A stretch of DNA of 7,128 nucleotides from JAHJDO01 sp030671985 [NCBI: bacterium] (GTDB lineage: Bacteria > JAHJDO01): positions 1-7,128 of the forward strand of contig DAOVHI010000076.1 in NCBI GenBank assembly GCA_030671985.1. Direction: 5' to 3'. Shown here in pieces: positions 2-7,128 of this stretch (within the stretch, counting starts at the first letter, position 1; each line of letters begins with the position of its first letter). The notes under the pieces were generated by a model. It did not search any database. It saw only the letters and a program-made list of their open reading frames with translations, and was not told the origin of the DNA. The position numbers and the translations under genes were made by a program.

Positions 2-253
2 GGGAGCTCTTTACTTAAAGGAATGGCATCAACTGTAAGAGATATATTCAATCTGCCGACAAGAATAGGTGTGCCAAGTCTTGCATATCAAATTAAAGAT
101 ATACCTGATAAACCAATTTATTCAACATGCACAGGACTATTACAATACGGTTTTGACTTTAGAACATCAGGAGGCACATCGAAATTTGAAAATAAAAATT
201 TCATGGGTAAAATGACAGGAAGTGTAAAGAAGATATTTGGAGATTTTTTCTAG
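2..253 (+). CDS. ftsA: Cell division protein FtsA, C-terminal fragment (5' end outside window)
   Basis: FtsA is the actin-like ATPase that tethers FtsZ filaments to the inner face of the cytoplasmic membrane and helps recruit the divisome. The reading frame is already open at base 2, so the gene begins upstream; 84 codons are visible, and the ATG at 23 is internal. The peptide opens with GSSLLKGM, matching the end of the actin-fold phosphate/adenosine motif (TGGSSLLPG in the family), then FNLPTRIGVPS and PIYSTCTGLLQYG, equivalent to the FtsA segment FNLPVRIG...YATAVGLLLYG. The last residues, KKIFGDFF, fit the usual FtsA amphipathic membrane-binding tail, so the 3' end is natural and not truncated. 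The unusual point is what follows: ftsZ is not adjacent but starts at 3615, after four other genes. The family call is strong; only the C-terminus can be judged. Confidence 0.9.
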   Translation, partial: GSSLLKGMASTVRDIFNLPTRIGVPSLAYQIKDIPDKPIYSTCTGLLQYGFDFRTSGGTSKFENKNFMGKMTGSVKKIFGDFF

Positions 254-271
254 TAACAATTAAATTAGCCC

Positions 272-314
272 CATCCCTAAAACAATTTCAGGGATGTATA
301 GAAGGGTTTTTAGG
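272..314 (+). promoter_or_regulatory. Leader with two mutually exclusive stems; one covers the AlbA_2 gene's Shine-Dalgarno site
   Basis: The ftsA-to-AlbA_2 gap contains a perfect 7-bp inverted repeat, CATCCCT (272-278) and AGGGATG (290-296), with an 11-nt loop. A second perfect 7-bp pairing, CCTAAAA (276-282) with TTTTAGG (308-314), shares bases 276-278 with the first, so both cannot form together. The second stem includes the AGG of the ribosome-binding site at 312-317. The first hairpin is not followed directly by a T-run (TATAGAAGGG comes before TTTTT), so it is a poor intrinsic terminator. The pairings are directly visible; a regulatory role is inference, and short pairings can arise by chance in an AT-rich leader. 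Confidence 0.3.
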
Positions 315-317
315 TGA
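312..317 (+). promoter_or_regulatory. Ribosome-binding site that decides the AlbA_2 gene start
   Basis: AGGTGA lies 6 nt before the ATG at 324, a normal spacing. It abuts the in-frame TTG at 318 with no spacing at all, so ATG 324 is preferred over TTG 318 as the start codon. Confidence 0.6.
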
Positions 318-323
318 TTGATT

Positions 324-980
324 ATGTTCAATGAAGAAATTTTAGATTATATTTTACATGACAAAGAGGAAACCTACCTTGAGTATAAAGATTCTATGAA
401 CTGGAAACAAGACAACACTAAATCAAAAATAATATGCACAATGTTGGCGCTATCTAATCACAGAGACGGTGGCGTTGTTGTAATTGGAGTAAAAGAAGAG
501 AAATTTAATAAAAGTTTTTGTCCGTTAGGTATGAACGATGATGATTTTAATTCATTTAACTATGACGATGTTGGAAGGATAATAAGAGAATATAGCGACC
601 CTTTGATTGAGTTCAAGTTATTAGCAGATACGGCTAAGATTGATGAACAAAATAGGAAGTTTGTCGTAATTCAAGTAGCCGAATCAAAAGAACCAACAAT
701 ATGTGTTAAATTTATTTTACGAAATAAATCAGAGAAGCATTATCCACAGAACATTGCTTTAAGAAAAAATGCGATTTATATTCGTTCTAAGGCTCCTATT
801 GAATCGAGGGAGATTGCGACAATTCATGAGTGGCGAGATTTAATTGATAGGGCTATAGAAAAAAATAAAAAAGAGTTATTTAGAAAATTGCCCTGTTCAA
901 GTTTTATAAAAAAAGAGGACATATCAGACATATCAGACATTAAAAAGCATAATCAAGATTTAACGGATGATAACTTATGA
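324..980 (+). CDS. Schlafen AlbA_2-domain protein (putative nucleic-acid-binding/ATP-binding family)
   Basis: Predicted cytoplasmic protein of 218 residues. Residues about 10-165 match the AlbA_2 (formerly AAA_4) domain shared by many bacterial putative regulators and eukaryotic Schlafens. The marks are an acidic N-terminal helix leading to YLEYKDS (18-24), the core ALSNHRDGGVVVIGV (42-56), and NAIYIRSKAPIESREI (149-164). The rest is a short lysine-rich helical tail (EKNKKELFRKL) ending in DISDISDIK. No helix-turn-helix or C-terminal ATPase region follows, so it is a minimal single-domain form. In Schlafen RNases this fold carries acidic catalytic residues; E15 and E20 have similar spacing, but activity is unproven. 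The start is ATG 324, with AGGTGA upstream. The stop overlaps the next start in ATGA, so translation is probably coupled. No clear promoter is visible, and readthrough from ftsA is possible. The family is recognised with good confidence; the function is unknown. Confidence 0.82.
   Translation: MFNEEILDYILHDKEETYLEYKDSMNWKQDNTKSKIICTMLALSNHRDGGVVVIGVKEEKFNKSFCPLGMNDDDFNSFNYDDVGRIIREYSDPLIEFKLLADTAKIDEQNRKFVVIQVAESKEPTICVKFILRNKSEKHYPQNIALRKNAIYIRSKAPIESREIATIHEWRDLIDRAIEKNKKELFRKLPCSSFIKKEDISDISDIKKHNQDLTDDNL
918..940 (+). repeat. 9-bp tandem repeat (about 2.6 copies) within the AlbA_2 gene
   Basis: The unit GACATATCA is repeated in tandem with period 9, giving 23 identical-phase bases. It encodes alternating Asp-Ile-Ser (DISDISDI) in the C-terminal tail. 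Because the unit is a multiple of three, slippage would change the tail length without shifting the frame. Confidence 0.8.
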
Positions 981-1678
981 GAAAACTAATAGATAAAATT
1001 AAATCACGGGGATACTGGAAAGTTGTCATAAGACCGGCTATTTATAAAGATAATCTGGTTACCTCACTTGATAAATGTAAAGAGATTGTTGAACAAAGCA
1101 AGGTCAGTTTAAGGGGTTGGGATTATCCGCATATTGATTCTAGCAGTATTAAGATTGCAGGGAATAATAGTGTTCATTCTTTTTGTGATTGGTCAGAATG
1201 GCCGATGTTTGAATATTGGAAGTTTTATCAAACAGGACAATTCGTTCATTATTTTTCGATGAGAGAGGATTTAAGAATGACTGAAGATAAAAAAAATGAG
1301 GTCAGGACAAATAATATCAATAAATTTTTAAGTATCATATCTACCATTTATTCTGTAACAGAAGTATTTGAATTTGCCTCTCGGATTGTTTCAAAGATCG
1401 ATAACAGCGACTCATTTGAAATAATAATTGAATTACATGATGCAAAAGATAGAATGTTATTTTTCTGGGATGCATTTCGTTCTTTACGCCGGTCATATAT
1501 TTGCGAATATGATCCTATCATAATCAAGAAAATTTTAACAAAAGAAGAAATTATTTCTAAACCCTCTGAGATAGCATTAGATGTTGCTATTGAGATTTTT
1601 AAAAGATTTAATTGGACCGATGTAAATAGGCAGATTTTTGTTGAGGATCAAAAGAAATTTTTTGAAAGAAGACTTTAA
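977..1678 (+). CDS. Unnamed protein, probable partner of the AlbA_2 protein
   Basis: This 233-residue protein does not match a family I can name. It is soluble by appearance, with no signal peptide or membrane segment. The N-terminal third is aromatic and basic: RGYWKVVIRPAIY (11-23), then SLRGWDYPHID (about 44-54), then EYWKFYQTGQFVHYF (about 79-93). From memory, the phrases VVIRP, LRGWDYPHI and YQSGQFVHYF recur in bacterial hypothetical proteins encoded next to, or fused behind, AlbA_2 domains; this needs a search. The second half (about 105-233) looks all-helical, with EVFEFASRIV and IALDVAIEIFKRFNW. The start codon overlaps the AlbA_2 stop (ATGA), and the next gene begins 3 bp after this stop, indicating one transcript and probably equal amounts of the proteins. 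The coding call is firm; the role is unknown. The simplest inference is that it forms a complex with the AlbA_2 protein. Confidence 0.75.
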   Translation: MRKLIDKIKSRGYWKVVIRPAIYKDNLVTSLDKCKEIVEQSKVSLRGWDYPHIDSSSIKIAGNNSVHSFCDWSEWPMFEYWKFYQTGQFVHYFSMREDLRMTEDKKNEVRTNNINKFLSIISTIYSVTEVFEFASRIVSKIDNSDSFEIIIELHDAKDRMLFFWDAFRSLRRSYICEYDPIIIKKILTKEEIISKPSEIALDVAIEIFKRFNWTDVNRQIFVEDQKKFFERRL

Positions 1679-1681
1679 TCT

Positions 1682-2626
1682 ATGCGACTAAAAATATATC
1701 CAGAAAATGCAATAAAAAAATACGAAACCGGAAAAGATATTGAGAACAAACAGGATGAGCGTTTGAGGTCAGCCCATTTAGGAAATAACATCGCTAAGTT
1801 CCATGACATGGTTCTTGAGAAATCGCAGCTGTTCTTATCTGACAACACGACCCCTGATAAGAAATTCGATGACTTAGTTATTTTTGCCTTGCTTAGTTCT
1901 CTCGTTAAGAGCTACAGGTTATTTAAAGGCATAAATTTATTATGCAAGAATGATCTGGAGCAAGAATCCAAGATTCTGTTCAGGTCTTTGTTCGAAGCTT
2001 ACTTGCTCATAGAGTATGTTGCTGACGCACCCAATGATATCACTAGAGCAGAGGATTGTGCAATTCGAGGTATTATTGCGGATAAGAAGCGCGAGAATGA
2101 GATTGATTCACTGAACATCACAAGAAAAGCTTCTGCCTTTCTCAAAAAGACTGAAACTGAAGCTGATAAATCTGAGCAACTCCGAAAACGAAGTGTTAAC
2201 ATTATTAATGCAAACTATGATGGAGCAATAGAAAGACTAAGGAAAAGACATCCTGATGAAGCTGGGCTTACAAATTGTCAGATAGCCGATAAGTATAAAA
2301 TGGATTTCGTTGACTTGGTCAAAATCATAAACAGGAAATACAAAACACAGTCTTGCGACCTAATACAAGAATACTATGCTATTATAATTCGTGATTGTGC
2401 TAAGTCTGTTCACTGCAATGAGCTCATAGGGGAGAATGTTAATTTGGACGATGATTCTGGGAAATGGGAAATCTTCCTAAAATCAAAAGAAACAAGCAGG
2501 GATACAATCCTTTCAGCAAGTGCAAATATATTCATAGCAATAATGGAGATTACAAATAGACTCTTAGATTTTCAGAAAGAGGTATTACTAACAGATCTCC
2601 GGAACAGATACAAAGAAGTTTCTTGA
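1682..2626 (+). CDS. DUF5677-like helical protein with a HEPN-like R-D-x5-H motif
   Basis: Predicted cytoplasmic, almost all-helical protein of 314 residues. The segment about 64-115 (FALLSSLVKSYRLFKGINLL, then FRSLFEAYLLIEYV with R101 and E105) resembles DUF5677-type proteins, which carry R-S-x2-E in one helix and a later S-x-x-H. Here the later motif is IIRDCAKSVHCNE, with R237, D238, S242 and H244. Arg followed by Asp and then six residues to His fits the R-x4-6-H signature of HEPN ribonucleases, which usually have N, D or H after the Arg. HEPN proteins are common in toxin and phage-defence loci, so an RNase role is possible but is inference. The middle (about 120-200) is highly charged and probably coiled-coil. 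The start is ATG 1682, 3 bp after the previous stop, with only a weak purine-rich GAAAGAAGA upstream. It is the last gene of the three-gene cassette and is followed by the longest non-coding gap. Family assignment is moderate. Confidence 0.65.
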   Translation: MRLKIYPENAIKKYETGKDIENKQDERLRSAHLGNNIAKFHDMVLEKSQLFLSDNTTPDKKFDDLVIFALLSSLVKSYRLFKGINLLCKNDLEQESKILFRSLFEAYLLIEYVADAPNDITRAEDCAIRGIIADKKRENEIDSLNITRKASAFLKKTETEADKSEQLRKRSVNIINANYDGAIERLRKRHPDEAGLTNCQIADKYKMDFVDLVKIINRKYKTQSCDLIQEYYAIIIRDCAKSVHCNELIGENVNLDDDSGKWEIFLKSKETSRDTILSASANIFIAIMEITNRLLDFQKEVLLTDLRNRYKEVS

Positions 2627-2778
2627 CAAACTAAGAAAAAAAGTTGAGAAGATGAGTGTGTAAAAACTAGACGGTGACCTTTTCTTAATTACCCCCCAAT
2701 CCCCTTCCTCAAACCAAAGCATAACCATCTCCATTCGCAATAACAGAAAAAAGCCAAAATCGTGTAGGGGAAAATTGT
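2627..2778. other. Non-coding spacer after the cassette
   Basis: This stretch between the DUF5677-like gene and the promoter of the exported-protein gene holds no credible ORF, tRNA or clear rho-independent terminator. The only ATG (2652) reads three codons. A C-rich run (TTACCCCCCAATCCCCT, 2689-2705) stands out against the AT-rich background and loosely resembles TTAGCCCCATCCCT at 265-278 on the other side of the cassette. Confidence 0.5.
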
Positions 2779-2807
2779 TTGTTTAAATGTTATGAGTATT
2801 CTATAAT
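2779..2807 (+). promoter_or_regulatory. Sigma70-type promoter for the exported-protein gene and probably ftsZ
   Basis: TTGTTT (2779-2784) and a perfect TATAAT (2802-2807) are separated by 17 bp. Transcription would normally start 6-8 nt after the -10 box, which falls on or next to the ATG at 2814. The mRNA would then be leaderless or nearly so. No Shine-Dalgarno sequence precedes this ATG. Because the genes from 2814 to 6419 are packed without an obvious terminator, this promoter could also drive ftsZ, pilT and tsaC. Confidence 0.65.
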
Positions 2808-2813
2808 ACGAAA

Positions 2814-3611
2814 ATGAGAATAAAGCTAGTGTTAATAACTTTCCTGACGATATTATTATCCTGTGGCGGTTATTTAGATAATGCTATGGCGGCAAAAAAA
2901 TCAATTATTATTGATCACACTTGCACTGACCTTTCTAAAATTCCAATAAAATGGATCGAAGCTGCAAAAGCGAAGATTAAACTTCACTATGCTCATACCT
3001 CTCATGGAGGACAACTCTTGGTAGGAATGAAGGAAATAGCCAGATTGAAACCTGCATACAGTTTTATTAGTAAACGCGGCAGTCTTCCAACTACTACAAA
3101 TTCTTTAGCTATATTTGACGGACAGGAAAACGCCACCTATATTACCCCTGAAAAATATTGGGCTTCGGAAGCAGGCAGAAGGGCAACTCAAAGTGTTCTT
3201 AATCGCAATAAGGGAATTAACGTATCAATGTGGTCATGGTGTTGTCAACAAGACCACAATTCACAGAAGACTACCCAAGGATATCTTGACGCAATAAATG
3301 CTCTCGAAAAAGCAAATCCCAAAGTAGTATTTATCTATATGACAGGCAATGCTCAGAAATCTTCTCATAATCGGTATGCTCGCAACGAACAAATCAGGAA
3401 ATATTGCAGAATGAATAATAAGGTTTTATTTGATTTTGCCGATATCGATTGCTGGTATAACGGAAAACAACAGATGGTTGGAAGTATTCCTGTAGAACAT
3501 TCTCAATATAGTGGAAAAGAAGTGGCTCATACTACCCGCGAAAGCTGCAGGATGAAAGGAAACGCTTTATGGTGGATGATGACGAGAATTGTCGAACTAA
3601 GTGGAATATAA
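2814..3611 (+). CDS. Exported SGNH/GDSL-hydrolase-like protein between ftsA and ftsZ
   Basis: A 265-residue secreted or periplasmic protein. It starts with a basic MRIK and a hydrophobic helix (5-16). This is followed either by a possible lipobox (LLSC, Cys17; the residue before Ser is atypical) or a signal peptidase I site after A24-M-A26. The mature part begins IIIDHTCTDLSKIP, then HYAHTSHGGQL (58-68), NVSMWSWCCQQ (136-146), FIYMTGN (173-179), RNEQIRKYC (190-198) and KVLFDFADID (203-212). From memory this pattern (DHTCTDL, HTSHG, MTGH/MTGN, RNxxIRxYC, DFADIE) marks an uncharacterised family of secreted proteins in environmental bacteria that resembles SGNH esterases; MTGN could be the block with the Gly/Asn oxyanion residues. 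The catalytic Ser is not certain and no classic C-terminal DxxH is obvious. The start fits the signal peptide. The gene ends 3 bp before ftsZ, so co-expression is likely. The substrate is unknown. Confidence 0.68.
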   Translation: MRIKLVLITFLTILLSCGGYLDNAMAAKKSIIIDHTCTDLSKIPIKWIEAAKAKIKLHYAHTSHGGQLLVGMKEIARLKPAYSFISKRGSLPTTTNSLAIFDGQENATYITPEKYWASEAGRRATQSVLNRNKGINVSMWSWCCQQDHNSQKTTQGYLDAINALEKANPKVVFIYMTGNAQKSSHNRYARNEQIRKYCRMNNKVLFDFADIDCWYNGKQQMVGSIPVEHSQYSGKEVAHTTRESCRMKGNALWWMMTRIVELSGI

Positions 3612-3614
3612 TCA

Positions 3615-4724
3615 ATGTTTGAAATAGTTAAAGAGACAACAACGGGTGCAAGTATCAAAGTAGTTGGAGTTGGCGGCGGCGGAAACAATTCTGTAGATGC
3701 AATATACAAAAAAGGCCTGTCCGGAGTAGAATATATTAATATCAATACGGATATACAGGCTCTCAAAGCATCTGTTGTTCCACACAAAATCCAAATTGGG
3801 CTAAAGACAACAGGAGGAGTTGGAACAGGTTCTAATATGGATTTAGGATACCGAAGTCTAAATGAAAGCAGATCGGAAGTTGCTGAAGCATTAAATAACT
3901 CAGATATTGTATTTGTAACCTGTGGGCTTGGCGGCGGAACAGGAACAGGAGCCGCGCCGTTAATCTGTGAAATTGCTCAAGAACTGGGAGCGCTAACAAT
4001 AGCAGTTGTTACAAGTCCCTTTCTGTTTGAAGGGGAAAAAAGGAGTACGCAGGCAAAAGACGGGTTAAGAAAAATAAAAGAAAAATCCAATGCAGTAATC
4101 TCTATACCAAATCAGAAACTTTTTGGGGCGATTGATAAAGAATCATCTTTTTCAAAAGCATTTGAGTTTGCAAATAACACTTTATTTGATGCTATCAGCG
4201 CAATTTCCGATCTAATAATTGCCCCGGGAATAATAAATCTTGATATATCAGACATTCAACAGGTGTTAAGCCATGGTAACGAAGCTACCTTAGCAGTCGG
4301 AACTGCGTATGGTGAAAAGAGAATGTCTTCTGTTGTTAAAAACGCTCTTTTATGTCCGCTGATGGAAGGAGTTGATATTAAAGGCGCAAAGACAATGCTT
4401 GTTAATATAACGGGCGACGAAGACCTCAGCATTGGAGAGGTTGAAAAAATCATTGATAACGTCCGTAAGGCAGTTACGCACAGTGCTAACATAGTATTCG
4501 GAGCTATTATAGATAAAAAATTAAATAATGGACTGAAACTTACAATTGTTGCTACCGATATTCCGTCTCTGAAAAAAAAGAAAGAGTTTGTCTCAGACGT
4601 TTCAAAAGTTCACAGAAGGGAATCTACAATAAAGGATCGCGTCATGCTAGAAAAAGTGAATAGAGAGCTGGGTGGTGACAGCAATTTGGATATTCCAACA
4701 TTTTTGAGAGCAAAATCCCGGTAA
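3615..4724 (+). CDS. ftsZ: Cell division protein FtsZ
   Basis: FtsZ is the tubulin-like GTPase that polymerises at mid-cell into the Z-ring, guides septal wall synthesis and is anchored by FtsA. The 369-residue protein has the expected parts: GVGGGGNNSV (18-27) and the tubulin signature GGGTGTG (106-112) for GTP binding, and the T7 synergy loop GIINLDISD (205-213) with N208, D210 and D213, which completes the active site of the neighbouring subunit. The C-terminal domain ends at about residue 316. A basic linker of only about 40 residues follows, then the conserved C-terminal peptide NLDIPTFLR (357-365) that binds FtsA. The loop usually written TRGLGAGANP reads TTGGVGTGSN here, losing the Arg, so the protein is divergent but functional-looking. 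The start, ATG 3615, lies 3 bp after the preceding stop with a weak GTGGA at 3601-3605; translational coupling is likely. pilT follows after 20 bp. Confidence 0.97.
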   Translation: MFEIVKETTTGASIKVVGVGGGGNNSVDAIYKKGLSGVEYININTDIQALKASVVPHKIQIGLKTTGGVGTGSNMDLGYRSLNESRSEVAEALNNSDIVFVTCGLGGGTGTGAAPLICEIAQELGALTIAVVTSPFLFEGEKRSTQAKDGLRKIKEKSNAVISIPNQKLFGAIDKESSFSKAFEFANNTLFDAISAISDLIIAPGIINLDISDIQQVLSHGNEATLAVGTAYGEKRMSSVVKNALLCPLMEGVDIKGAKTMLVNITGDEDLSIGEVEKIIDNVRKAVTHSANIVFGAIIDKKLNNGLKLTIVATDIPSLKKKKEFVSDVSKVHRRESTIKDRVMLEKVNRELGGDSNLDIPTFLRAKSR

Positions 4725-4734
4725 AACAGGATAT

Positions 4735-4740
4735 AAGGAG
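4735..4740 (+). promoter_or_regulatory. Strong Shine-Dalgarno site of pilT
   Basis: AAGGAG lies 4 nt before the ATG at 4745 and 10 bp after the ftsZ stop. It is the best ribosome-binding site in the window and shows that pilT is translated independently of ftsZ, although probably from the same transcript. Confidence 0.75.
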
Positions 4741-4744
4741 AAAA

Positions 4745-5833
4745 ATGAAAATAGAAAAATATCTCAAAGAACTTGTTCAGAAAAACGGTACGGATTTACA
4801 TCTAAAAACCGGAAGCCCAGCTAAGATTAGAATAAGCGGGACTTTAACTTCCTTTGGAGAGAAACTTTCTTCAGAAGATACTAAAAATGTTGCGTTTGAA
4901 CTAATGAGTGAGAAGCAAATACGAAAATTCAACGAAGAACTTGAGATGGATATTTCGTACGGAGTTCCTGATCTAGGACGCTTCAGGGTTAATATTTTTT
5001 TACAGAGAGGAAATGTAGGATTAGTTTTGAGAAAGGTAAGAACGGATATAGGAACATTTAAAGAGTTGAATCTGCCTTCTACGCTGGAAAAAATATCCTT
5101 ATCAAAAAGAGGGCTAATTATTGTTTCAGGCGCAACAAGCAGTGGAAAATCAACAACTGTCGCGTCCATGATAGATTATATAAACGCGAACTTAAGTCGC
5201 CATGTTATAACAGTTGAAGATCCTATTGAATTTCTCTACAAAGACAAAAAAAGCATTGTGAATCAGAGGGAAGTGCATATAGATACATCTTCATACTCTA
5301 TTGCGTTACGCCACGCCATGCGTCAGGATCCGGATGTTATCCTGATAGGTGAAATGAGAGATATTGAAAGTTTTCATATTGCTCTAGCGGCGGCGGAAAC
5401 AGGACATATTGTGCTGACAACACTTCATTCAAATGATACATCAGGCGTGTTTAGCAGAATACTTGACTTTTTTCCTCCGTCTCAACATCATCAGATCAGA
5501 ATGCAGCTTTCTCTCAATCTTAAGGCCGTTATTTGCCAGCGGCTTATACCAAGAATGGACAAGGATGGAATGACCCCTGCAGTAGAAATACTGATAAATA
5601 CTCCCGTGGTTTCCAGATTAATAAGGGAAAATAGACTGGATAAGATAATAGCTGCCATTCAAGGCGGAGCGGAAGAGGGTATGCAAACATTTAATATGTC
5701 TCTGGTTGAATTATGTCAAAAGAGCTTTGTAAGCAAAGAACAGGCCATGGCTAACGCAACAAATCCTGAAGCATTAAAAATGAACCTGCAAGGAATATTT
5801 CTTAGTGAGGATAAACAGATACTCGGCGGTTGA
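4745..5833 (+). CDS. pilT: Type IV pilus retraction ATPase PilT (twitching motility)
   Basis: PilT is the hexameric cytoplasmic ATPase that powers type IV pilus disassembly and retraction. The 362 residues match the family's usual length of about 345-370. The N-terminal PAS-like domain contains GTDLHLKTGSPAKIRISG (15-32). The core has the Walker A motif GATSSGKST (129-137), the Asp box VEDPIE (157-162), atypical Walker B ILIGEMRD (199-206) with E203, and the His box HIVLTTLHSND (221-231). The late helix, AIRNLIRE in classical PilT, is VVSRLIRE here (288-295): the LIRE end needed for retraction is kept and the first half is changed. GMQTFNMSL near the C-terminus is typical of PilT and the paralogue PilU, which cannot be fully excluded. 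No other pilus gene is in view. The last 29 bp overlap the start of tsaC. Its place directly after ftsZ is unusual compared with well-studied bacteria. Confidence 0.94.
   Translation: MKIEKYLKELVQKNGTDLHLKTGSPAKIRISGTLTSFGEKLSSEDTKNVAFELMSEKQIRKFNEELEMDISYGVPDLGRFRVNIFLQRGNVGLVLRKVRTDIGTFKELNLPSTLEKISLSKRGLIIVSGATSSGKSTTVASMIDYINANLSRHVITVEDPIEFLYKDKKSIVNQREVHIDTSSYSIALRHAMRQDPDVILIGEMRDIESFHIALAAAETGHIVLTTLHSNDTSGVFSRILDFFPPSQHHQIRMQLSLNLKAVICQRLIPRMDKDGMTPAVEILINTPVVSRLIRENRLDKIIAAIQGGAEEGMQTFNMSLVELCQKSFVSKEQAMANATNPEALKMNLQGIFLSEDKQILGG
5790..5795 (+). promoter_or_regulatory. Ribosome-binding site for the GTG start of tsaC, inside pilT
   Basis: AAGGAA lies 9 nt before GTG 5805. It supports a start inside the 3' end of pilT; no in-frame ATG exists between 5805 and the conserved PTDTVYGLG segment. 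Confidence 0.6.
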
Positions 5834-6419
5834 GGCCTTAAAAAAAGGGGAAGTTATAGTTCTTCCGACTGACACTGTCTATGGTCTTGGGTGCGTGTGT
5901 AACAGTGAACAGTCCACGGATAAGATTTATGATCTAAAAAGCCGGGATCGCAAAAAGCCCTTAATTCTGTTTGTTTCAAATTTAAAGCAAGTGGAAGATA
6001 TTGCTTATGATATTCCGCCAATAGCAAAAGAGCTTATGAACAAGTTCTGGCCCGGTTCGCTCACTATTATCCTAAGAGCGAAAAAACATGTTCCAGTGTC
6101 TCAAGCATGTATCTTTAAAACAGATAAATTCGGCACAATAAGTTTTAGAATACCCAATCATCCAATACCGCAATTTTTAGTAAAGAAATTAGGAGTGCCT
6201 ATCGCTACAACAAGCGCTAATATTTCCGGATATAACTATCAAGCAGCCTCAGTTAAGATGTTGGAGAAAATATTTGAGGATAAAGTAGATATATGTATTG
6301 ATGATAATGAGATACCGATTGGAATAGAATCCACCGTTATAGACTGCAGTGTCAATCCCCCATCAATATTACGTGAAGGTGCTCTAGGAAATCAGATAAG
6401 ATTATACTTAACGCGCTAA
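5805..6419 (+). CDS. tsaC: Threonylcarbamoyl-AMP synthase (TsaC/YrdC family)
   Basis: This enzyme makes threonylcarbamoyl-AMP from L-threonine, bicarbonate and ATP. That is the first step of the t6A modification at position 37 of tRNAs reading ANN codons, and TsaBDE complete the transfer. The 204 residues form a single YrdC domain without the extra C-terminal Sua5 domain, so it is the short TsaC type. Visible motifs are VLPTDTVYGLG (19-29), the nucleotide-binding KSRDRKKPL (45-53), FWPGSLTIIL (81-90), SFRIPNHP (113-120), PIATTSANISG (132-142) and IESTVID (174-180) followed by ILREG. The start is GTG 5805 with AAGGAA upstream, in a 29-bp overlap with pilT, which suggests coupled translation. 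Its TAA stop (6417-6419) overlaps the TAG stop of the convergent oxidase gene. The family call is very secure. Confidence 0.95.
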   Translation: MRINRYSAVEALKKGEVIVLPTDTVYGLGCVCNSEQSTDKIYDLKSRDRKKPLILFVSNLKQVEDIAYDIPPIAKELMNKFWPGSLTIILRAKKHVPVSQACIFKTDKFGTISFRIPNHPIPQFLVKKLGVPIATTSANISGYNYQAASVKMLEKIFEDKVDICIDDNEIPIGIESTVIDCSVNPPSILREGALGNQIRLYLTR

Positions 6420-7128
6420 ACCAACTTCCTAGAAAAGATATTGTCTAATCCCAAGATACAATGCGGGTCAAGAGTCTTCTTAACTTTTACCATTTCTAAG
6501 ATTCCTTTACTGCCGTACATTACTTCCAAATACTTATGCTTTATCTTCCCTATGCCGTGTTCCGCAGACACTGTCCCTCCCATTTCCACTGCTTTCCGGA
6601 TAGCTTTACTGCATATGCCTTTAACTATCATTTTTTCTTTTTCATTCTTTGGAAAAAGATTAAGATGCAGATGGTTTTCTCCAATATGTCCGTAGAGAAC
6701 AAATTGGATATCCACGTCTCTTAGAACCTGTTTGTAAAAATAGAAAAGTTTTTCAAATGATTCATCAGGCACAGCAATATCAAGAGCAATCTTGGGTGAT
6801 TTAATCTCCTTGAAGTAATTTCTTACTTTCTCCGGAAGCTTGTGCCGAAAATCTATAAGCTCCTGGTACCTCTTTTTATCCTGACTTATCCATGTATCAA
6901 TAACTTCATATTTATCCAGAAGATTCAGCCACACATCCAAAGTATTCTCTCCTTCTTCCTCCTCTATATAAAGAGCCGCTGTTGAGTTACTCGGTATGCT
7001 CTGAAAATCGCTTCTTAAAAAATCCAGGCTGTTTTTGTCAAAATATTCTAATGAAACAGGTTTTAGGTCTGAATTATTCTTAATCTCAGAAACAAATTCA
7101 AAAAGTCTCTGTTCATCAGGCAGGAAAA
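6416..7128 (-). CDS. FAD-linked oxidase, GlcD/D-lactate dehydrogenase type, C-terminal part (5' end outside window)
   Basis: This is the C-terminal half of a flavoprotein that oxidises a 2-hydroxyacid such as glycolate or D-lactate. The minus-strand frame stays open from 7126 to the stop at 6416, giving 236 codons without the N-terminal FAD-binding PCMH domain, which must lie beyond base 7128. The codon at 6940 that could be taken for a start is an internal TTG (Leu). The visible part is the FAD-oxidase C-terminal domain: SLEYFDKNSLDFL, an acidic EEEEGE stretch, IALDIAVPDESFEKL, FVLYGHIGENHLHLNLF and GGTVSAEHGIGKIKHKYL, then KKTLDPHCILGLDNIF. The last two blocks correspond to the substrate/metal histidines and the FAD contact of GlcD-like enzymes; GHIGENHLH differs from GHxGDGNxH but similar variants exist in D-lactate dehydrogenases. 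The exact substrate cannot be told. It is convergent with tsaC, and the stop codons overlap. Confidence 0.88.
   Translation of the reverse strand, partial: FLPDEQRLFEFVSEIKNNSDLKPVSLEYFDKNSLDFLRSDFQSIPSNSTAALYIEEEEGENTLDVWLNLLDKYEVIDTWISQDKKRYQELIDFRHKLPEKVRNYFKEIKSPKIALDIAVPDESFEKLFYFYKQVLRDVDIQFVLYGHIGENHLHLNLFPKNEKEKMIVKGICSKAIRKAVEMGGTVSAEHGIGKIKHKYLEVMYGSKGILEMVKVKKTLDPHCILGLDNIFSRKLV

What the first reader, a model, noticed from the sequence alone, without database searches (positions are those of the whole stretch)
324..2626. Candidate three-gene system: AlbA_2 (Schlafen) + unknown aromatic protein + DUF5677/HEPN-like protein
The ATGA overlap and the 3-bp gap show tight coupling of a Schlafen-fold protein, a protein with no recognised domain, and a helical protein with a potential RNase motif. 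Schlafen and HEPN proteins are both linked to RNA cleavage and antiviral responses, so this could be an undescribed defence or stress module. No trained defence-system name fits what I see.
Basis: partly seen in the sequence, partly recalled or inferred. Interest (0 to 1): 0.65.

Follow-up and report, generated by a model that had tools for sequence, protein, structure and literature searches.

The report
Schlafen RNase with undescribed partner domain
A small inserted gene cassette pairs a bacterial relative of an antiviral RNA-cutting enzyme with a partner protein that matched no family in the libraries searched; the partner turns up in distant microbes attached to several alternative enzymes that can stop a cell, sometimes beside anti-virus genes, which suggests a swappable sensor for cell defence.

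Summary
The three genes are real: AlbA_2 (324-980), a protein without a known family (977-1678, "P2") and DUF5677 (1682-2626). They lie in an insert between ftsA and ftsZ; two sister genomes have the empty site. The core is the first two genes: of 40 P2 loci examined in bacteria and archaea, 34 have AlbA_2 directly upstream (21) or fused (13). P0001 keeps the Schlafen RNase acidic triad at SLFN13 spacing. P2 is not bound to AlbA_2: it is fused to TIR domains in three proteins that are rejected as one clade (AU p 2.6e-6) and to RelA/SpoT in one. P2 loci lie near type I restriction genes more often than expected (5 against 0.28); type III RM, Shedu and PD-Lambda-4 genes also flank some. Most likely P2 senses infection, or gates the response, and switches a toxic effector. 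The third gene is loosely tied: DUF5677 is adjacent in 2 of 40 loci and its HEPN identity is unproven. No activity was tested.

The parts
324..980 (+). P0001, AlbA_2 (Schlafen-type) protein, 218 aa; acidic triad E15, E20, E58; predicted RNase effector
   Evidence: Pfam PF04326 E 6.2e-10; alignment A6 of 23 AlbA_2 proteins: E15 in 23, acidic at 20 in 23, acidic at 58 in 20; profile matches CbCash and SLFN11/14/8/12/5 in the PDB
977..1678 (+). P0002, 'P2' (RGWDYP) domain protein, 233 aa; predicted sensor or gate of the effector
   Evidence: no family in four libraries; AlphaFold2 mean pLDDT 91.7, no confident fold match; AlbA_2 partner in 34 of 40 loci
1682..2626 (+). P0003, DUF5677 protein, 314 aa; optional third gene, helical, R237-x6-H244; role unknown
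   Evidence: Pfam PF18928 E 1.1e-10; AF2 mean pLDDT 69.9; adjacent to the pair elsewhere only in L056
254..3613 (.). insert between ftsA and ftsZ that carries the cassette plus one hypothetical gene (2814-3611)
   Evidence: sister genomes G001 and G002 have ftsA directly followed by ftsZ; G004 has a RelE/ParE-like pair upstream of the hypothetical gene

Best explanation
The cassette encodes a two-component, defence-type unit. P0001 is a Schlafen (AlbA_2) ribonuclease held inactive in the healthy cell. P0002 (P2 domain) is its dedicated partner, which detects an infection-linked signal, or receives it from a neighbouring system, and releases the nuclease, which then cuts tRNA or rRNA and stops translation (abortive infection). 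P2 is a module independent of its effector: elsewhere the same domain is joined to TIR or RelA/SpoT domains. DUF5677 is an optional add-on, perhaps a second effector. Shown here: the pairing, the fusions, the conserved acidic triad, more than one effector change on the P2 tree, the neighbours, the empty insertion site. Inferred: RNase activity, the gating and sensing role of P2, defence against phages, the role of DUF5677.
For: AlbA_2 is directly upstream (21) or in the same ORF (13) in 34 of 40 P2 loci; 16 of the 21 separate pairs overlap by 4 or 8 bases. AlbA_2 and P2 distances correlate, r = 0.80 over 26 loci, 0 of 5000 permutations as high. The triad spacing equals SLFN13 E205/E210/D248, whose mutation diminished activity (PMC5862951, passages read). 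P2 is fused to TIR in L007, L070 and L106 and to RelA_SpoT in L069 (Pfam E 1.8e-11, 8.4e-22, 2.8e-19, 5.5e-12); the three TIR forms are rejected as one clade. Homology of the two P2 subfamilies was checked without shared rows: hhalign 98.4%, E 5e-15. Of 26 HSDR_N genes in 30 P2 genomes, 5 lie within 10 kb of a P2 locus (0.28 expected, Poisson 1.2e-5). Type I, II and III RM, SduA, PDC-S06 and PD-Lambda-4_A neighbours. The insert site is empty in two sisters and has a toxin-antitoxin-like pair in a third.
Against: No activity or phage test exists. A restriction, Shedu or PD-Lambda-4 neighbour was recognised in 12 of 40 loci only; in the other 28 I recognised none, though their neighbours were mostly not scanned by profile and no random-region control was run. 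The window itself has no RM gene beside it, and G000 has no HSDR_N match. HSDR_N is common (17 of 30 P2 genomes, 9 of 14 control genomes), and one of the five neighbours (G012) has an internal stop. P2 has no confident fold match, so sensing is inferred from architecture alone. The acidic residue at position 58 is lost in 3 of 23. P0001 has one AlbA_2 lobe, SLFN13 two. Partner labels are not clustered on the P2 tree beyond shuffles, and long branches weaken the clade test.
Confidence: 0.6

Rival explanations
1. A toxin-antitoxin pair: AlbA_2 is a toxin and P2 merely neutralises it, without sensing anything; the module persists by addiction and mobility.
For: Overlapping two-gene order; in sister G004 a RelE/ParE-like pair lies in the corresponding insert upstream of the shared hypothetical gene.
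Against: P2 is fused to AlbA_2 in one polypeptide in 13 of 40 loci and to TIR or RelA_SpoT in 4, which is unlike a free, labile antitoxin; placement inside type I and III RM operons suggests a working link with restriction.
Confidence: 0.18
2. A regulatory pair: AlbA_2 proteins bind nucleic acid and P2 is a ligand-binding half; together they control expression of neighbouring genes such as RM operons.
For: AlbA_2 homologues are annotated as ATP-binding or RNA-binding proteins; L070 has a LexA-type winged helix.
Against: The RNase acidic triad is conserved; P2 is attached to TIR and RelA_SpoT domains, which belong to enzymes rather than regulators.
Confidence: 0.1
3. A true three-gene system in which DUF5677 is a HEPN-type RNase and an obligate third part.
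For: 3-base gap in the window; DUF5677 next to the pair in L056 (407 bases away, same strand; Pfam E 1e-30); outside the window's genome 2 of 3 DUF5677 genes in P2 genomes lie within 10 kb of P2 (0.018 expected); Pfam HEPN-type families near other pairs (DUF3644 in L006 and L011, DUF4145 in L004).
Against: Adjacent in only 2 of 40 loci; 4 of 34 P2 or sister genomes hold any DUF5677; 10 of the 13 Chloroflexota-sample genomes that have it over the cut-off lack P2; three annotated plasmid or phage neighbourhoods of DUF5677 name no such pair; R of RX6H in 5 of 13.
Confidence: 0.1

Closest known systems
Bacterial Schlafens in anti-phage defence (Taboada et al. preprint, known here only as reference 144 of PMC12839542; not read)
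   Same: by title and citation, AlbA_2/Schlafen proteins acting in anti-phage defence
   Different: PMC12839542 (passages read) describes Schlafen RNases fused to a minimal histidine kinase and wHTH in BREX loci; here the partner is P2, more often a separate gene. Whether the preprint already covers P2 could not be checked
Vertebrate SLFN13 and SLFN11/14 RNase domain
   Same: three-carboxylate triad; P0001 spacing E-x4-E-x37-E equals SLFN13 E205/E210/D248
   Different: one AlbA_2 lobe instead of two; separate partner protein
CbCash (PDB 9ylu, 9ylv, 9ylx)
   Same: best PDB match of the AlbA_2 profile, E 6.2e-11 over 139 residues
   Different: no paper found for it; no PDB chain at all matches the P2 profile
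PHROG 38563 (464 aa, function unknown)
   Same: matches AlbA_2-P2 fusions L058 and L061 over nearly their full length (E 1.9e-40, 2.3e-19)
   Different: unannotated; fused rather than two genes
TIR-containing defence proteins (Thoeris ThsB type, retron-TIR)
   Same: TIR half of L070 matches Pfam ThsB_TIR above its cut-off (27.3 against 21.2 bits)
   Different: joined to P2; NCBIfam whole-protein models for retron-TIR and Thoeris type III are matched far below their cut-offs

Membership tests
Schlafen / AlbA_2 RNase (P0001) | AlbA_2 domain | tested here: met
   PF04326 E 6.2e-10, 40.1 bits against cut-off 25.3
Schlafen / AlbA_2 RNase (P0001) | three-carboxylate active site | tested here: met
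   E15-x4-E20-x37-E58; 23/23, 23/23 and 20/23 acidic in A6; SLFN13 E205/E210/D248
Schlafen / AlbA_2 RNase (P0001) | two-lobed N-domain as in SLFN13 | tested here: not met
   P0001 has a single AlbA_2 match in 218 aa; so not filed as a vertebrate-type SLFN
Schlafen / AlbA_2 RNase (P0001) | tRNA/rRNA cleavage | not testable with these tools
   needs an assay
HEPN superfamily (P0003 / DUF5677) | RX4-6H motif conserved in the family | tested here: not met
   R237-x6-H244 in P0003; H in 13/13, R in 5/13
HEPN superfamily (P0003 / DUF5677) | HEPN fold | tested here: inconclusive
   AF2 pLDDT 69.9; no Foldseek hit under E 0.001; Csm6 rows at Z 8.3-8.4 lie among unrelated helical rows
Catalogued anti-phage systems (PADLOC-DB 2.0.0) | match of any of the three proteins to a model | tested here: not met
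   0 families for all three at E up to 1
Any named family (P0002) | profile match in Pfam, NCBIfam, PADLOC or PHROGs | tested here: not met
   (only a PHROG at E 0.057)
AdoMet decarboxylase-like fold (P0002) | fold match | tested here: inconclusive
   best VIA Z 6.3 (rmsd 3.3, 103 aligned; spermine synthase), AdoMet decarboxylase Z about 6, under the level of 8; Foldseek E 0.035

The most novel reading that the evidence does not exclude
P2 is an undescribed, effector-independent sensor domain of prokaryotic immunity, shared by bacteria and archaea: one sensing fold plugged into at least three enzyme classes (Schlafen RNase, TIR, RelA/SpoT), and placed inside type I and III restriction operons as a tripwire that fires when restriction is blocked or overwhelmed. 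A bolder, weakly supported form: P2's faint likeness to AdoMet-decarboxylase and phage SAM-lyase folds means that it senses loss of, or a product from, the SAM that these restriction systems need.
Probability: 0.4. Interest if true: 0.82.

Novelty: new variant of a known kind. Interest (0 to 1): 0.63.

Why it matters
Schlafens are antiviral RNases in animals, and (from general knowledge) what switches them on in prokaryotes is largely open. A dedicated partner domain that is also attached to TIR and RelA/SpoT domains gives a direct handle: the same signal should activate quite different effectors, so swapping effectors behind one P2 domain can identify the trigger. It would also explain a gene of unknown function found inside several restriction operons.

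Tried and rejected
DUF5677 as a core part: rejected on co-occurrence (adjacent in 2 of 40; one search finds DUF5677 in 4 of 34 genomes; in 16 of 301 genomes of the Chloroflexota sample, 13 over the cut-off, 3 of these shared with the 11 P2 genomes). DUF5677 as HEPN: left open. A 194-aa gene in L066 and a 295-aa gene in L013 look HEPN-like by eye (R-x4-H), but no Pfam or NCBIfam family supports it, so they are not counted; the same holds for a 262-aa gene in L065, DUF5677-like by eye only, which also failed a DUF5677 profile built here. The N-terminal part of L008 looks TIR-like by eye but matches no library tried, so it is not counted as a TIR fusion.

P2 in viruses: one UViG (L005), which scores identically to the Rhizobium locus L013 and is not counted; none in the phage records. 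Yet PHROG 38563, a family of viral proteins, matches two AlbA_2-P2 fusions over nearly full length, so viral or prophage members must exist. Fold searches for P2 gave nothing confident; families not listed there are not excluded. P0001 and P0003 in plasmids: nothing; P0003 in viral contigs: nothing. Promoter scan no better than shuffles, no terminator found. Archaeal phylum survey: only the seed genome, 1 of 300. A paper on Schlafen-domain piRNA nucleases was opened (PMC10567574, passages) and not used.

Rows dropped before counts: G368 (E 7e-4) was never examined; L005 as a duplicate; L068, a 103-aa partial match, is kept in the 40 as 'no partner'. L104 and L105 were dropped from the distance test and tree because my P2 coordinates gave stop codons; L059 and L062 were left out of the tree; L004, L108 and L112 were in neither. 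Pieces of fused ORFs were cut by hand. The surveys score only some first-look candidates per genome (7), so their counts are lower bounds. Literature: searches found no paper describing P2 (listings only, apart from the papers named); the library holds no bioRxiv collection, and the key preprint was not readable. On checking I corrected one statement (defence neighbours recognised in 12 of 40 loci, not about half) and lowered confidence from 0.62 to 0.60 for it.
Full report
OBSERVATION. The window is contig C125 of a 1.25 Mb draft genome (G000) whose phylum is represented by only 5 held genomes, all of one genus. P0001 matches SLFN_AlbA_2 (PF04326, E 6.2e-10), P0003 matches DUF5677 (PF18928, E 1.1e-10), and P0002 matches nothing in Pfam, NCBIfam or PADLOC and only a PHROG at E 0.057. 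The longest + strand ORF of the stretch, 314 codons, far exceeds the best of 500 mononucleotide shuffles, 128. G+C is 31% for genes 1 and 2, 37% for gene 3 and 39% for ftsZ.

THE SITE IS AN INSERT. The bases before the cassette encode the end of FtsA (NCBIfam FtsA, weak E 0.0012, under the cut-off; the identification also rests on its place before ftsZ). In sister genomes G001 and G002 the match to the window jumps from window position 252 to 3614 with no bases between: the ftsA stop overlaps the ftsZ start. The window thus carries about 3.4 kb of extra DNA: the three genes plus a 265-aa hypothetical gene. G004 has that hypothetical gene too but, upstream of it, a small pair whose toxin half resembles ParE/RelE (Pfam ParE_toxin E 0.0051, under the cut-off); its contig ends there. 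In G003 no ftsZ match was found. So this junction seems to take up accessory, conflict-type genes.

THE CONSERVED UNIT IS ALBA_2 PLUS P0002. A relative of P0002 was first found on a Rhizobium plasmid, directly after an AlbA_2 gene. With a two-row profile, genome contigs gave ten relatives, titled as Moraniibacteriota, Bathycorpusculum (an archaeon), Elusimicrobia, Bryobacteraceae, Chloroflexi, Dormiibacterota and Alphaproteobacteria such as Agrobacterium, Rhizobium and Martelella. Surveys of the phyla of these genomes (the genomes themselves are unnamed; phylum names are taken from the seed titles) found the domain ('P2') in 11 of 301 genomes of the Chloroflexota sample, 5 of 398 Pseudomonadota (one weak, not examined), 8 of 286 Patescibacteria, 1 of 300 archaeal genomes and 7 of 297 Acidobacteriota. 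The counts include the seed genomes, two of them in the first sample. A Deinococcus plasmid carries one more. In all I examined 40 distinct loci: the window, L004, L006-L015, L050-L070, L103-L108 and L112. AlbA_2 is a separate gene directly upstream in 21 and part of the same ORF in 13; 16 of the 21 separate pairs overlap by 4 or 8 bases. The remaining six: three TIR fusions (L007, L070, L106), one RelA_SpoT fusion (L069), one 1573-aa protein with an HTH (L062), one 103-aa partial match (L068). AlbA_2 and P2 divergence run in parallel: r = 0.80 for 26 loci, 0 of 5000 permutations as high; linkage by descent alone would also produce this.

P2 IS NOT TIED TO ONE EFFECTOR. Pfam recognises TIR_2 in L007 (E 1.8e-11), L070 (8.4e-22, after a LexA-type DNA-binding domain) and L106 (2.8e-19, with SEFIR 1.5e-16), and RelA_SpoT in L069 (5.5e-12). 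Some of these belong to a diverged P2 subfamily, so I compared profiles that share no rows: hhalign gives 98.4% probability and E 5e-15 over 194 columns. On a maximum-likelihood tree of 32 P2 domains the three TIR forms are rejected as one clade (AU p 2.6e-6), and well-supported branches force at least two changes of partner type (that group also held L008 and L069). Many inner branches are unresolved, and long branches, above all L070, weaken details. Partner type therefore appears to have changed more than once.

THE EFFECTOR LOOKS LIKE AN ACTIVE SCHLAFEN RNASE. In SLFN13, Glu205, Glu210 and Asp248 form a three-carboxylate site whose mutation diminished activity (PMC5862951, passages read). 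P0001 has E15, E20 and E58, the same spacing. Among 23 aligned AlbA_2 proteins (P0001 included), position 15 is E in 23, position 20 is acidic in 23 (one of them, L055, with one residue fewer in between) and position 58 is acidic in 20. A profile of these proteins finds CbCash (E 6.2e-11) and SLFN11, 14, 8, 12 and 5 in the PDB; the printed SLFN11 and SLFN14 alignments place the same residues together. A single-sequence search with P0001 found nothing in the PDB. P0001 has only one AlbA_2 lobe; activity is inferred.

NEIGHBOURS POINT TO DEFENCE. In 30 P2 genomes, 26 HSDR_N genes (fragments merged by me) include 5 within 10 kb of a P2 locus: G005, G012 (a gene with an internal stop), G232, G260 and G743. 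The expectation is 0.28 (Poisson P 1.2e-5; rounded genome sizes). HSDR_N itself is common: 17 of the 30 genomes and 9 of 14 control genomes. In L006 and L066 the pair lies inside a type I RM operon, in L063 between the Mod and Res genes of a type III system, in L064 beside a type III Res, in L059, L103 and L055 beside HsdR or HsdS genes, in L058 near a type II methyltransferase, in L053 214 bases after a Shedu SduA gene and beside a PDC-S06 gene, and in L004 just after PD-Lambda-4_A. On the Deinococcus plasmid pDrdVI an annotated helicase and an Eco57I-type methylase lie nearby. With L013 (G012) this makes 12 of 40 loci. I scanned selected neighbours, not all, and ran no random-region control; in the other 28 loci (L009, L050 and L051 for example) I recognised no such gene. 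G000 itself has no HSDR_N match.

THE THIRD GENE. DUF5677 is present in 4 of 34 genomes searched and beside the pair in 2 of 40 loci: the window, and L056, 407 bases downstream on the same strand (Pfam E 1e-30). In G307 it lies about 9 kb away; in G014 it is on another contig. Outside G000, 2 of 3 such genes are within 10 kb of P2 against 0.018 expected. In the Chloroflexota sample 3 genomes have both against 0.48 expected (hypergeometric P 0.009). These numbers are small, and common residence in accessory islands could explain them. R101 and H244 are invariant in 13 aligned proteins, but the R of the RX6H motif is present in 5. The model is of middling quality (pLDDT 69.9) and its fold search inconclusive. 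DUF3644 and DUF4145, which PMC3710099 (passages read) lists as HEPN families, lie near the pair in L006, L011 and L004. A loose pattern of helical HEPN-type genes near the pair is thus possible but not shown.

P2 STRUCTURE. The AlphaFold2 model of P0002 is confident (mean pLDDT 91.7). Foldseek finds nothing under E 0.001 in the PDB or among viral models; the best aligned rows, spermine synthase and AdoMet decarboxylase (Z about 6), are under the level at which a match means more than a common arrangement. No PDB chain matches the P2 profile by sequence at E up to 1.

MECHANISM. I infer that P2 is the sensing or gating half and AlbA_2 the toxic half: infection, or failure of a companion restriction system, is detected by P2, and the nuclease then cuts tRNA or rRNA and stops the cell. 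This accounts for the frequent pairing, the fusions, the replacement of AlbA_2 by TIR or RelA_SpoT, and the restriction context of some loci. A simple toxin-antitoxin pair is the main rival.

KNOWN OR NEW. Bacterial Schlafens as anti-phage RNases are known in outline: PMC12839542 (passages read) describes Schlafen RNases in BREX loci and cites a preprint that I could not read. PHROG 38563, of unknown function, covers the AlbA_2-P2 fusion. No paper found or 120 describes P2. I file the window's unit as a new variant of bacterial Schlafen defence, with an apparently undescribed partner domain.

Noticed in passing
window 2814-3611: 265-aa protein with a signal-like N-terminus and no family above cut-off; shared with G004, absent from the ftsA-ftsZ junction of G001 and G002.
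   Followed up: partly
L080 5543-6050 (-): In sister G004 a RelE/ParE-like toxin and putative antitoxin lie upstream of the same hypothetical gene, so the ftsA-ftsZ junction looks like a site for accessory conflict genes.
   Followed up: partly
L004 5986-6686: The P2 gene of the Rhizobium beringeri plasmid is interrupted in frame and unannotated; it follows a PD-Lambda-4_A gene and an AlbA_2 gene.
   Followed up: partly
L008 1288-3901: Elusimicrobia: P2 has a 170-aa N-terminal part that looks TIR-like by eye but matches no family, after an AlbA_2 + HATPase + Fic-like_C protein.
   Followed up: partly
L062 6515-11236: P2 inside a 1573-aa protein with an N-terminal HTH, after a HipA-like gene (by eye); the large remainder has no family.
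   Followed up: no
L109 3468-4589 (Bacillus phage SPR spr_109): A DUF5677 relative encoded by an SPbeta-like phage, annotated as hypothetical.
   Followed up: no
L059, L060, L065, L112: Recombinase-like genes lie near the AlbA_2-P2 fusions (by eye; annotated in L112), in keeping with mobility.
   Followed up: no
window 3615-6940: Downstream genes read by eye (recalled, not searched by family profile) as FtsZ, a PilT-type ATPase, a Sua5/TsaC-type protein and an FAD-linked oxidase end on the minus strand.
   Followed up: no
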